From positions 3,472,001 through 3,536,000 of the forward strand of contig NZ_CP114013.1 of assembly GCF_028416635.1 (NCBI RefSeq): a DNA stretch of 64,000 nucleotides, read 5' to 3'. The notes beneath the pieces are model-generated. The model saw only the letters and a program-made list of their open reading frames with translations, was not told the DNA's origin and made no database searches. How positions within the stretch are numbered: the first letter of the stretch is position 1; every line of letters begins with the position of its first letter. Below are positions 50,506 to 54,491 of the stretch, in pieces. This DNA comes from Baekduia alba (GTDB taxonomy: Bacteria; Actinomycetota; Thermoleophilia; Solirubrobacterales; Solirubrobacteraceae). A program made the position numbers and the translations under genes.

Positions 50506-50898
50506 GGGCCGGAGGTCCGCGTCTCCGCGGCGGACGATCGCGTTGCCGGATTGCAGGGCCGCGGAGTCCACGTGGACGGTGCCGTCCTCGTCGACCGTGC
50601 TGACCTTGGCGGAGACGACGACCTCCTCCTCCAGGACGCCCATCCCGCGGAAGCCGACGCTGAGGCGCTTGAGGGCGTGCGGGCCGCCGGCGACCTCGGT
50701 GTGGGCGCGCGCGACCTGGGCCATCGTCCACAGGCCGTGGAGGATCCGGCCCGGCAGGCCGACCTGCTTGGCGAAGTCCTCGTCGATGTGGATGGGGTTG
50801 AAGTCGCCGGAGGCGCCCGCGTAGCGGACCGTCAGGTAGCGGTCCGGCGTGACCTTGAGGTCGGGCAGCTCGGCGCCGGGCTCGAAGTCCATGATCAT
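50503..50898 (-). CDS. MaoC-family (R)-hydroxyacyl dehydratase subunit, HadB-like
   Basis: 131 residues with a hot-dog fold. YAGASGDFNPIHIDEDFAKQVGLPGRILHGLWTM contains the catalytic Asp and His of the MaoC hydratase motif (D-x4-H). It is coupled by an ATGA overlap to a second MaoC-type subunit lacking that motif, like the mycobacterial HadA/HadB pair that dehydrates 3-hydroxyacyl-ACP. ATG at 50898 chosen for the overlap; the ATG at 50892 is possible. Confidence 0.85.
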   Translation of the reverse strand: MIMDFEPGAELPDLKVTPDRYLTVRYAGASGDFNPIHIDEDFAKQVGLPGRILHGLWTMAQVARAHTEVAGGPHALKRLSVGFRGMGVLEEEVVVSAKVSTVDEDGTVHVDSAALQSGNAIVRRGDADLRP

Positions 50899-51323
50899 GC
50901 TCCCCGCACGATGTTGGTCCAGGTGCCCACGGAGACCGTGTGCCCGTCCTGGTTGGTCGCGACCGACTCGAAGGTGAAGAAGCCGTTGCCGGCGCGGTGC
51001 TCGATCGCCTTGACGCTGACGACCGTCGTGATCTCGTCGCCGGCCACGACCAAGGGCCCCCACTTGAACTCCTGGCCGCCGTGGACGAGACGGGCGAAGT
51101 CGATCTCGAGCTCGGGGTCGAAGTACGCCTGACCGATCGCCTGGCTGCAGTAGACGACTGCGAACATCGGCGGAGCGACGACGTCGGCGTAGCCGGCGGC
51201 GCGGGCGGCCTCGTGGTCGAGGTGCCGCGGGTCGGTCTCCCCCACCGCACGCGCGTACTCCTTGATCTTCTCGCGGCCGACCGCGTAGAGGACGGGCGGG
51301 TAGGACTTGCCGACGGGCGCCAT
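50895..51323 (-). CDS. MaoC N-terminal-domain dehydratase subunit, HadA-like
   Basis: 142 residues. VGREKIKEYARAVGETDPRHLDHEAARAAGY and VVAPPMFAVVYC are the FAS1/MaoC N-terminal signatures of the non-catalytic HadA-type subunit; the D-x4-H hydratase pair is not present. It should form a heterodimer with the next gene product. It has its own -10-like element overlapping the stop codon of eamA. Confidence 0.85.
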   Translation of the reverse strand: MAPVGKSYPPVLYAVGREKIKEYARAVGETDPRHLDHEAARAAGYADVVAPPMFAVVYCSQAIGQAYFDPELEIDFARLVHGGQEFKWGPLVVAGDEITTVVSVKAIEHRAGNGFFTFESVATNQDGHTVSVGTWTNIVRGA

Positions 51324-51332
51324 TGCGCGGTG

Positions 51333-51338
51333 ATGCTA
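51333..51338 (-). promoter_or_regulatory. -10-like hexamer of the maoC operon overlapping the eamA stop
   Basis: TAGCAT on the minus strand ends nine bases before the ATG at 51323; its TAG (51336-51338) is the eamA stop codon. Confidence 0.45.
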
Positions 51339-52253
51339 GGTGACGCGCGTCCGCTGTGTGGCGACGACGGCGGCGAGGACCGCGACGGCCGCGACGGCGG
51401 TGCCGGGGCCGATGTGCTCGCCCAGGATCGCGGCCGCCCAGGTGAGCGAGAGCACCGGCTGGGCGAGCTGGACCTGGCCGATCTTCGCGACGCCGCCGCG
51501 CGCCAGGCCGGCGTACCAGGCGAAGAACGCCAGGAACATCGAGATCACCGACAGGTAGGCGAAGCCCAGCCAGGCGTTCGCGCCGGCATGCGCGCCGTCC
51601 TGGGCGACGGCGACCGCCGCGACGAGCGCCGTGGCCGGCAGGCTGAGGACCAGCGCCCAGCAGATCGTGTTGGCGCCGCCGAGCTCGCGCGACAGGCGGC
51701 CGCCCTCGGCGTAGCCCAGCGCGCAGAGGACGACCGCGATCAGCAGCTCGAGGTCCGGCGTCCCGAGGTGTCCACCACCTTGACTGAGGGCGAAGGTCAG
51801 GACGGCGACCAGGCCGGCGCTCGAGGCGAGCCAGAACGCGCGCGTGGGGCGTTCGCCGGCGCGCAGGACGGCGGCCACCGCGGTCGTGGCGGGGAGCATC
51901 CCGACGACCACGGCGCCGTGCGACGCCGGCACGCGATGCAGCGCGAGCGAGGTGAACAGCGGGAAGCCGACGACGACGCCGAACGCGACGACGACGAGCG
52001 ACCGCCACTGCGTCGTCGTGGGCCTTGCCGCACGCGTGGCCCGGAGCACGACGACGCTCAGCAGCCCCGCGACGACCGCGCGGCCGAAGGCCACCAGGAA
52101 CGGGTTCAGATCGGCGACCGCGAGCCGCGTCGCCGGCAGCGAGAACGAGAACCCCAGGACGCCGAGCGCGCCGAGGACGAGGCCGGGCGGCAGGGCGTGC
52201 CCGCGTGCTTGCGTTACTCCACCGCGTGTAGTAACGTTACTCTCGATACTCAT
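51336..52253 (-). CDS. EamA/DMT-superfamily transporter
   Basis: 305 residues with ten hydrophobic helices in two EamA repeats (FSFSLPATRLAVADLNPFLV in the first, AYLSVISMFLAFFAWYAGLA in the second). Exports or imports a small metabolite; the substrate is unknown. It is divergent from the MocR-type regulator and their start codons overlap within CATG. In such pairs the regulator usually senses a PLP-related or amino compound and controls the transporter. Confidence 0.9.
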   Translation of the reverse strand: MSIESNVTTRGGVTQARGHALPPGLVLGALGVLGFSFSLPATRLAVADLNPFLVAFGRAVVAGLLSVVVLRATRAARPTTTQWRSLVVVAFGVVVGFPLFTSLALHRVPASHGAVVVGMLPATTAVAAVLRAGERPTRAFWLASSAGLVAVLTFALSQGGGHLGTPDLELLIAVVLCALGYAEGGRLSRELGGANTICWALVLSLPATALVAAVAVAQDGAHAGANAWLGFAYLSVISMFLAFFAWYAGLARGGVAKIGQVQLAQPVLSLTWAAAILGEHIGPGTAVAAVAVLAAVVATQRTRVT

Positions 52254-52266
52254 GATTGACGGTAAC
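52213..52266. promoter_or_regulatory. Operator region with four GTTAC boxes between eamA and mocR
   Basis: GTTAC or its complement occurs at 52213-52217, 52231-52235, 52236-52240 (the last two forming the palindrome GTAACGTTAC) and 52262-52266. The -10-like TACTCT of mocR (52238-52243, 8 bases from its ATG) and TACCGT of eamA (52259-52264 on the minus strand, 5 bases from its ATG) both overlap boxes, so a bound regulator would block both promoters. Confidence 0.6.
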
Positions 52267-53655
52267 ACAGAATCGCGTGTTATCGAGGATGTGCGGACGG
52301 CTGCCCGTGCCCTCCCCCCGGGCAGCCGCCTGCCATCTGTGCGTGAGCTGATGGCGCGCCACCGCGCGTCCCCCGTCACCGTCCAGCGCGCGCTCTCGCG
52401 GCTGGCCGGCGAAGGGCTCGTGGTCCCGCGGCCCGGTCGCGGCACGTTCGTGGCCGAGCGCGCGACGGGAAGCGTTACCCCGAAAGCGCCCGACCTCGGC
52501 TGGCAGGAGGTCGCGCTCGCCGACCGTCCGCCGCTCCAGGCCGGCTCGCTCGACCAGCTGCTCGCCGTCCCGCCCACCGGCGCGATCGCGCTGACCGGCG
52601 GGTACCTCGGCCCCGACCTCCAGCCGCTCGCCGCCCTCGGCGCCGCCCTCGGCCGCGCCGCGCGCCGGCCCGAGACCTGGGGTCGCCTCGCCGTCGAGGG
52701 CCTGGACCCGCTGCGCGAGTGGTTCGCGCGCGAGGCCGGCGGCCACGTTCGCGGCCACGACGTCGTCATCTGCAACGGCGGTCAGCCGGCGCTCGCCACG
52801 ACCTTCCGCGCGCTCGCCGCGCCCGGCGAGCCCGTGCTCGTCGAGTCCCCCACCTACCTCGGCGCGATCGCCGCGCTGCGCGCCGCCGGGCTGCGGGCGG
52901 TCCCGGTCCCGACCGACGAGCACGGCGTGCGCCCCGAGCTGCTGGCCGGGGCCTTCGCGCTGACCGGCGCCCGCGTCTTCTACTGCCAGCCGCTGCACGC
53001 CAACCCGAGCGGCACGACGCTCGCGGCCGAGCGCCGCGCCGCGGTGCTCGAGGCCGTGACCGCCGCCGGCGCTTTCCTGATCGAGGACGACTGGGCGCGC
53101 GACCTGCGCATCGACGGCGACGCGCCGCCGCCGCTGGCCGCCGGCGACCCGGACGGGCACGTCGTCTACCTGCGCTCGCTGACCAAGTCGGCGGCGCCCG
53201 GGCTCCGCGTGGCGGCGGTGAGCGCGCGCGGCGCGGCGGGCGCGCGCCTGAAGGCCGCGCGGATCATCGACGACTTCTTCGTGTCCGGCCCCCTGCAGCA
53301 CGCGACTCTGGAGCTGGTGAGCACCCCTGCGTGGCGGCGTCATCTCAAGACGCTGCGCACCGAGCTGCGGGCGCGCCGCGACGCGCTCGTCGCCGCGCTG
53401 GGCGAGCACCTGCCCGACTGGGAGCTGCAGACCGTCCCGGCCGGCGGCCTGCACGTCTGGGTCCGCCTGCCCGACGGCGTCGACGACGCCGCGCTCACCG
53501 CGCGCGCGGTGGCGGCCGGCGTCCTCGTCTCCCCCGGCCGGCCGTGGTTCGCCGCCGAACCGCCCGCCCCGCACCTCCGCCTGACCTTCGCCGGCGCACC
53601 GGCTCCCGACCTCGCGGAGGGCGTGCGCCGCCTCGCGAAGGTGATGCAGAAGTGA
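52252..53655 (+). CDS. MocR-type regulator: GntR winged helix fused to a class I aminotransferase domain
   Basis: 467 residues. Residues 10-75 are a GntR winged helix (PPGSRLPSVRELMARHRASPVTVQRALSRL). The rest is an aminotransferase-like domain with VFYCQPLHANPSGTTLA, IEDDWARDLRIDGD and the PLP lysine in LRSLTKSAAPGLRVA. MocR proteins use PLP as a sensor and regulate transporters or PLP metabolism. Autoregulation and control of eamA are inferred from the shared operator. The ATG overlaps the eamA start; no other start keeps the winged helix whole. Confidence 0.92.
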   Translation: MIDGNTESRVIEDVRTAARALPPGSRLPSVRELMARHRASPVTVQRALSRLAGEGLVVPRPGRGTFVAERATGSVTPKAPDLGWQEVALADRPPLQAGSLDQLLAVPPTGAIALTGGYLGPDLQPLAALGAALGRAARRPETWGRLAVEGLDPLREWFAREAGGHVRGHDVVICNGGQPALATTFRALAAPGEPVLVESPTYLGAIAALRAAGLRAVPVPTDEHGVRPELLAGAFALTGARVFYCQPLHANPSGTTLAAERRAAVLEAVTAAGAFLIEDDWARDLRIDGDAPPPLAAGDPDGHVVYLRSLTKSAAPGLRVAAVSARGAAGARLKAARIIDDFFVSGPLQHATLELVSTPAWRRHLKTLRTELRARRDALVAALGEHLPDWELQTVPAGGLHVWVRLPDGVDDAALTARAVAAGVLVSPGRPWFAAEPPAPHLRLTFAGAPAPDLAEGVRRLAKVMQK

Positions 53656-54491
53656 CGCACATCGGCCTCGGCCTGCCCATCGTCGACCCCGCCACGCTGA
53701 TCGACTGGGGCCGGCGCGCCGAGGCCGCCGGCTTCGCCACGGTCGCGATGCTCGACCGCTGGGTGTGGGACAACGCGGAGCCGCTCGTCGCGCTTGCCGC
53801 GCTGGCCGCCGCCACCGAGCGCATCGGGCTGCAGACCGAGGTGCTGCTCGCTCCGCTGCGCGATCCCGTGCTGCTGGCCAAGCAGGCCGCGACGCTCGAC
53901 CGGATCTCGCGCGGGCGGCTGACGCTCGGCCTCGGCGTCGGCGGCCGGACCGACGACTTCGCGGCCGCGAACGTCCCGATGCGCGAGCGCGGCAGGCGCA
54001 TGGACGCGGCACTGCCGACGATGCGCCGCATCTGGCGCGGCGAGGGCACGATCGGCCCGGCGCCGCACCGCCCGTGCGGACCCGAGGTCCTGATCGGCGC
54101 CGGCGCTCCCGTCGCGCTGCGGCGCGCGGCCGTGCACGGCGACGGCGTGATCGCGTCCGACGGGCTCAAGGAGACCGAGGCGCTCTTCGCGCGGGCACGC
54201 GCGGACTGGGCGGCCGAGGGCCGGGCGGGCGTGCCGCGGCTGTGCGCGCAGCTCGACGTCGTGCTCGGCCCCGAGGACGTCGTCGCCGACGCCCGCGGGC
54301 GGATGAGCAAGTTCTACGCCTACCTGCCTTGCGACGCGACCACGCGGCTGCACGCCGGCGAGGCCGCGATCGCGGGCGCGATCGACGCCTACACCAAGCT
54401 CGGCGCGGGCGAGATCACGCTGTTCTGCTGGGCGGTCGACCCCGACCAGATCGAGCGGCTGGCCGCGGTCGTGGCACCATCGCCGGCGTGA
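53652..54491 (+). CDS. LLM-class flavin-dependent oxidoreductase
   Basis: 279 residues of the luciferase-like TIM-barrel family. HIGLGLPIVDPATLIDWGRRAEAAGF, then EVLLAPLRDPVLLAKQAATLDRISRGRLTLGLGVG, the standard LLM signature, and PEVLIGAGAPVALRRAA. It may use F420 or FMN; the substrate is unknown. GTG start with a four-base GTGA overlap with mocR; the next gene overlaps in the same way, so mocR, this gene and the PIG-L-like gene form one operon. Confidence 0.88.
   Translation: MTHIGLGLPIVDPATLIDWGRRAEAAGFATVAMLDRWVWDNAEPLVALAALAAATERIGLQTEVLLAPLRDPVLLAKQAATLDRISRGRLTLGLGVGGRTDDFAAANVPMRERGRRMDAALPTMRRIWRGEGTIGPAPHRPCGPEVLIGAGAPVALRRAAVHGDGVIASDGLKETEALFARARADWAAEGRAGVPRLCAQLDVVLGPEDVVADARGRMSKFYAYLPCDATTRLHAGEAAIAGAIDAYTKLGAGEITLFCWAVDPDQIERLAAVVAPSPA

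What the first reader, a model, noticed from the sequence alone, without database searches (positions are those of the whole stretch)
52213..52291. MocR and EamA genes with overlapping divergent start codons under four GTTAC boxes
Both ATGs lie in the tetramer CATG (52251-52254), so neither message can have a leader without running into the other gene. GTTAC/GTAAC occurs four times in 54 bp and covers both -10-like hexamers. This is an extreme compact divergon in which a PLP-sensing regulator would shut both genes at once.
Basis: partly seen in the sequence, partly recalled or inferred. Interest (0 to 1): 0.65.

Follow-up and report, generated by a model that had tools for sequence, protein, structure and literature searches.

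The report
Start-on-start MocR/EamA divergent gene switch
A regulator gene and a membrane-transporter gene run in opposite directions from one shared four-letter start site, and the regulator's likely binding boxes are written across both promoters and into the first codons of both genes, an arrangement kept at nearly base-exact positions across many actinobacteria.

Summary
Both ATGs lie in CATG (52251-52254). Four of the window's eight GTTAC/GTAAC words lie within 54 bp (0 of 300 simulations). In 97 homologous loci the layout is fixed relative to the mocR A: palindrome halves at -21 and -16, CATG in 95 of 97, a further box at +10. EamA is open in frame to CATG in 85 of 87 pairs. An 18-base pattern of the layout hit 21 of 396 genomes of the phylum, every time at this junction, with 0 control hits.

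The boxes look like a MocR operator. Box type (GTTAC or GCTAC) matches one HTH residue in 116 of 116 sequences (V30 or T/N/S), with three concerted changes on the tree. A conserved TANNNT sits 5 nt before the EamA ATG and TARCGT or TACTNT before the mocR ATG. No Shine-Dalgarno was found at either start, so both messages are probably leaderless or nearly so.

Most likely MocR binding shuts both face-to-face promoters; the sign of control and PLP sensing are inferred, not shown. This is a new variant of the known MocR divergon. The library held no MocR-EamA description, but published supplementary motif tables could not be read.

The parts
52252..53655 (+). mocR-type regulator gene (467 aa; GntR wHTH plus fold-type-I aminotransferase domain)
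   Evidence: Pfam PF00392 and PF00155; relatives start at the same ATG
51336..52253 (-). EamA/DMT-family transporter gene (305 aa)
   Evidence: Pfam PF00892 E=4e-29; frame open to CATG in 85 of 87 relatives
52251..52254 (.). CATG holding both start codons; self-complementary, so each strand reads C|ATG
   Evidence: CATG in 95 of 97 homologous loci
52230..52241 (.). central operator palindrome AGTAACGTTACT (half-sites 52231-52235 and 52236-52240)
   Evidence: halves fixed at -21 and -16 in relatives; unique in genome
52213..52217 (+). box 1, GTTAC, 23 bp before the palindrome's right half; overlaps the -35-like TTGCGT (52209-52214)
   Evidence: GTTAY at -39 in most GTTAC-type relatives; RTARC at -44 in most GCTAC-type relatives
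52262..52266 (-). box 3 (GTTACC on - strand), inside mocR codons 4-5, overlapping the eamA -10
   Evidence: RTARC at +10 in nearly all relatives, including loci without EamA
52279..52284 (+). box 5, GTTATC, inside mocR codons 10-11; inverted partner of box 3 (52261-52268 / 52277-52284)
   Evidence: GTT used for Val at this place in most GTTAC-type actinobacterial relatives although GTT is 4% of Val codons; absent in GCTAC-type relatives
52232..52237 (+). mocR -10 candidate TAACGT (17-bp spacer to TTGCGT 52209-52214; leader about 8 nt)
   Evidence: TARCGT at this place in nearly all GTTAC-type loci
52238..52243 (+). second mocR -10 candidate TACTCT, 8 nt before the ATG (leaderless)
   Evidence: T at -9, the hexamer's last base, in 64 of 64 GCTAC-type EamA loci
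52259..52264 (-). eamA -10 candidate TACCGT, 5 nt before the ATG (leaderless)
   Evidence: A at +7 (the hexamer's last T) in 86 of 87 EamA loci; lost in correctly anchored proteobacterial loci without EamA
52339..52341 (+). mocR codon 30 (Val), HTH residue whose identity tracks the operator type
   Evidence: V with GTTAC in 38 of 38, T/N/S with GCTAC in 78 of 78

Best explanation
This is a self-contained divergon. MocR binds GYTAY half-sites (palindrome 52230-52241, box 1, box 3, and here box 5) laid over two overlapping promoters that face each other and share a CATG start. Shown by sequence comparison: fixed geometry, start-on-start overlap, and co-variation of boxes with HTH residue 30. Inferred: both messages are leaderless or nearly so; MocR bound to the boxes covers both -10 elements and both start points and so represses its own gene and the transporter together; a ligand handled through the PLP-binding domain relieves this; and because the two polymerase footprints overlap, the promoters also exclude each other. 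The transporter probably moves the amine or amino-acid-like compound that is sensed (a guess from the families).
For: Layout invariant in 97 loci, 26 named or coded genera among the EamA pairs. Pattern of the layout: 21 of 396 genomes, 21 of 21 at a MocR start with the other frame beginning EamA-like or decayed EamA, 0 reversed-pattern hits. EamA frame open to CATG in 85 of 87 with N-termini varying by whole codons. Rare codons fixed where boxes fall: AGT is 2.6% of Ser codons in clade A eamA bodies yet recurs at the box. Residue 30 carries all the information on box type and is the top-ranked column of the first 85 residues; three concerted changes on the tree. It aligns with FadR Glu34, next to the DNA-contacting Arg35 (PMC4494728; my alignment by the LPxxRxL motif). 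No SD-like sequence at either start in 117 loci. RefSeq annotates the same 2-base overlap in Arthrobacter and Microbacterium plasmids. TANNNT, C|A|T initiator preference and frequent leaderless genes are known in M. tuberculosis (PMC3898074).
Against: No binding or 5'-end data. The GTTAC-to-GCTAC switch happened only about three times, so the co-variation, though perfect, cannot reach significance by independent pairs. CATG also persists where no gene starts on the other strand (some proteobacterial and BenE loci), so C before ATG may serve mocR initiation alone. L011 and L106 have the other frame out of phase. 38 of 82 EamA genes have another possible start before TM1, though not at a place shared by all. 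Which mocR -10 is used in this species is undecided. No -35 is evident for eamA.
Confidence: 0.68

Rival explanations
1. GabR-like mode: MocR represses its own gene at the palindrome and box 1 and, with PLP and ligand, activates eamA rather than repressing it; blocking the mocR promoter also frees the overlapping eamA promoter.
For: MocR divergons are often self-repressor plus activator of the target (PMC5320631). Overlapping promoters would make self-repression favour eamA.
Against: Box 3 overlaps the eamA -10 and the palindrome lies downstream of its start, which is where repressors sit; no box is conserved in both clades at the eamA -35 or just above it (profiles, which reach +50).
Confidence: 0.22
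2. The conserved words are only promoter elements and N-terminal coding sequence, not a MocR operator.
For: Boxes overlap -10 and -35 hexamers and the first codons of both proteins.
Against: Palindrome symmetry; box 3 kept where the eamA -10 is lost (proteobacterial loci); box type tracks HTH residue 30 without exception; rare codons fixed at the boxes.
Confidence: 0.06
3. The EamA start is downstream and the overlap is only a long open frame in G+C-rich DNA.
For: 38 of 82 loci have an in-frame ATG/GTG/TTG before TM1; in BenE loci the frame from CATG closes.
Against: Frame kept in 85 of 87 with whole-codon length changes; no other start exists in 44 of 82, this locus included; the eamA -10 is placed for a start at CATG and no SD precedes that ATG.
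Confidence: 0.08

Closest known systems
MocR/GabR-subfamily divergons (Suvorova and Rodionov 2016, PMC5320631)
   Same: GntR wHTH plus aminotransferase-like domain; regulator divergent from its target; operators of two to four repeated boxes in direct and inverted order; DMT-superfamily transporters named as targets of PdxQ regulators
   Different: The main text does not mention overlapping starts, start codons or leaderless messages; here the operator lies inside both coding sequences. Their supplementary motif tables could not be read, so this group may be listed there.
PdxR (NCBIfam NF052282)
   Same: Best NCBIfam match, over residues 19-461
   Different: 226 bits against a cut-off of 320, so not assigned to it; no PLP-synthesis gene was seen beside it
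Overlapping face-to-face divergent promoters with one operator (bioA/bioBFCD, argE/argCBH of E. coli; from memory)
   Same: Promoters facing each other across a shared operator
   Different: As I recall, those start codons do not overlap; here both start codons share four bases
Leaderless genes of actinobacteria (M. tuberculosis, PMC3898074)
   Same: TANNNT shortly before ATG, no SD; includes a divergent regulator pair (prpD and Rv1129c), both leaderless
   Different: No start-codon overlap appears in the passages read

Membership tests
MocR subfamily of GntR regulators | N-terminal GntR wHTH | tested here: met
   PF00392 E=1.9e-13, residues 19-67
MocR subfamily of GntR regulators | C-terminal fold-type-I aminotransferase domain | tested here: met
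   PF00155 E=8.7e-23; matches GabR 4n0b and aminotransferases
MocR subfamily of GntR regulators | PLP-lysine and phosphate/carboxylate-contact residues | tested here: met
   SLTKSAAPGLR aligns with the SK..PG.R lysine motif, with NPSG, EDD and RLTF motifs kept; PLP binding itself not tested
MocR subfamily of GntR regulators | Binds repeated boxes at its own divergent promoter | tested here: inconclusive
   Boxes conserved and tracking HTH residue 30; no binding data
PdxR equivalog | Score above NCBIfam cut-off | tested here: not met
   226 bits, cut-off 320
EamA/DMT transporters | EamA repeats | tested here: met
   PF00892, two stretches, 102 bits against 28.2
Leaderless genes | Transcription starts at the start codon | not testable with these tools
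   Needs 5'-end mapping; TANNNT spacing and lack of SD agree

The most novel reading that the evidence does not exclude
CATG acts as a two-way initiator and double start codon: two leaderless messages begin on opposite strands within a few bases, so their promoters exclude each other, and one MocR operator, written into the N-termini of both proteins, sets which or whether either is made. The layout has been held at base resolution across Actinobacteria, and residue 30 is the specificity switch between GTTAC and GCTAC operators.
Probability: 0.45. Interest if true: 0.75.

Novelty: new variant of a known kind. Interest (0 to 1): 0.6.

Why it matters
Divergent gene overlaps are about 1% of overlaps among well-characterised genes, and all 75 of those longer than 60 bp that were examined were judged annotation errors (PMC2478687). 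Here a short start-on-start overlap is kept across many genera with the operator inside both reading frames, so regulation visibly shapes the N-termini of both proteins. It gives a clean test of promoter exclusion between two leaderless messages, a predicted one-residue specificity switch in a GntR-type HTH, and a DNA signature that finds the system directly in genomes.

Tried and rejected
Sigma-70 consensus scan: no promoter-like site, as expected in a genome where TANNNT is the better guide. Wider regulon: GTARCGYTAC occurs at only one other place in the genome, near a helicase-like gene with no evident link to this system. The first spaced pattern search used a spacing one base too long and missed the own site; corrected. 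HTH residue 32 (E or not) does not track the boxes (12 changes on the tree); residue 30 does. L042 and L046 were anchored on a wrong ATG and are not counted as evidence on position +7. No papers in the library hold both MocR and EamA.

Full report
Observation. The sequence at 52200-52290 is as described. mocR runs + from 52252 and eamA runs - from 52253, so both ATGs sit in CATG 52251-52254. The 64-kb window holds 8 GTTAC/GTAAC words against about 16 expected, and four of them lie in 54 bp; none of 300 simulated windows did this. The middle two form the palindrome AGTAACGTTACT, unique in the genome with up to one mismatch. A fifth box, GTTATC at 52279-52284, pairs with the fourth as GGTAACAC-N8-GTGTTATC.

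Proteins. The regulator has GntR and class I/II aminotransferase domains, the MocR architecture; the partner is an EamA transporter. The best NCBIfam model for the regulator is PdxR, well below its cut-off (226 against 320 bits), so it is a MocR-subfamily protein of unassigned regulon. The lysine and other cofactor-contact motifs are present in alignments to solved aminotransferases; PLP binding was not tested.

Conservation. Homologues were collected from relatives and public genomes. Anchored on the mocR A, 95 of 97 loci have CATG; palindrome halves RTARC at -21 and GYTAY at -16 and box 3 RTARC at +10 hardly move; box 1 is GTTAY at -39 in most GTTAC-type loci and RTARC at -44 in most GCTAC-type loci. 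The two loci without CATG are Acidisoma homologues in which I anchored on a wrong ATG. EamA lies on the other strand in 87 loci and is open in frame to CATG in 85, with N-termini that differ by whole codons, up to 99 longer. A pattern of 18 specified bases (palindrome, CATG, +7 A, box 3) was then sought in 396 genomes of the phylum: 21 genomes match once each, the reversed control never, and all 21 are mocR starts; the other frame begins an EamA-like protein in nearly all, and L157 and L161 look like decayed EamA. RefSeq itself annotates the 2-base overlap in plasmid copies from Arthrobacter and Microbacterium.

Why the boxes are an operator. They are palindromic, they are spelled with codons that are rare in these genes (AGT 2.6% of Ser in eamA, GTT 4% of Val in mocR), and box 3 persists in proteobacterial homologues that have no divergent EamA. 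The strongest evidence is co-variation with the protein: of the first 85 residues, residue 30 alone carries all the information on box type, V with GTTAC in 38 of 38 and T, N or S with GCTAC in 78 of 78. On a tree built without the HTH both traits change three times and together, including BenE-linked loci that have GTTAT boxes and V30 inside a GCTAC group. Three changes are too few for a significance test by independent pairs. Residue 30 aligns with FadR Glu34, next to Arg35, a base contact (PMC4494728). Box 3 follows the palindrome's right half with one exception, L074.

Promoters. In EamA loci A at +7 is kept in 86 of 87; on the - strand it is the last T of a TANNNT hexamer ending 5 nt before the EamA ATG. 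In the six correctly anchored proteobacterial loci without EamA it is T, C or G. This contrast is about one event on the tree. For mocR, GCTAC-type loci have TACTNT or a close TANNNT 8 nt before ATG, with T at -9 in 64 of 64; GTTAC-type loci have TARCGT six bases further up, often with TTGCGT at 17-bp spacing, and keep T at -9 in only 11 of 23. This species has both. No SD-like sequence precedes either start in 117 loci. TANNNT, leaderless starts and C(-1)A(+1)T(+2) initiation are established in M. tuberculosis (PMC3898074). CATG is self-complementary and offers that initiator on both strands. I infer leaderless or near-leaderless messages on both strands.

Mechanism. With start points within about ten bases and promoters that face each other, the two polymerases cannot bind together (inferred from typical footprints). 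MocR on the palindrome and box 3 would cover both -10 elements, so joint repression is the simplest reading; GabR-like activation of eamA is the main rival. The palindrome has no other related site in the genome with an evident link, so control is probably local. The ligand and the transported compound are unknown.

Limits. No wet data exist here. CATG alone is weak evidence of overlap, since C before ATG persists where the other strand starts no gene. 38 of 82 EamA genes have another possible start before TM1. The locus set is enriched for a few genera, and some rows are near-duplicates.

Relation to known systems. MocR divergons, multi-box operators and DMT-superfamily targets are described (PMC5320631). 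The main text there does not discuss overlapping starts or leaderless messages, and no paper in the library holds both MocR and EamA; the supplementary tables were not readable. I file this as a new variant of a known kind.

Noticed in passing
L045, L048, L136, L139 (MFS); L051, L138, L142 (BenE); L042, L046, L050 (DUF1127): Relatives of this MocR keep much of the box layout but face other genes: MFS or BenE transporters or a DUF1127 protein, as if the regulator-operator unit were reused with new partners. The MFS label of L045 and L048 is by resemblance to L136 and L139, whose annotation says MFS.
   Followed up: partly
50895-51323: A MaoC-like gene (PF13452) starts 12 bp after the end of eamA on the same strand; the neighbour is kept in relatives L003-L009, so eamA may be co-transcribed with it.
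   Followed up: partly
53652-54491: A luciferase-like monooxygenase gene overlaps the end of mocR; its homologue was not found in the relatives' flanks that were held.
   Followed up: partly
L157, L161: EamA looks decayed while the operator and the mocR start are intact.
   Followed up: no
L003, L010, L115: EamA N-termini lengthened by 61 to 99 codons between CATG and TM1, repetitive in L010 and L115, still in frame.
   Followed up: no
L137: A Deinococcus plasmid homologue, also beside a DMT transporter, has GTAACGTTAC and GATAAC words in a different spacing, with annotated starts well apart.
   Followed up: no
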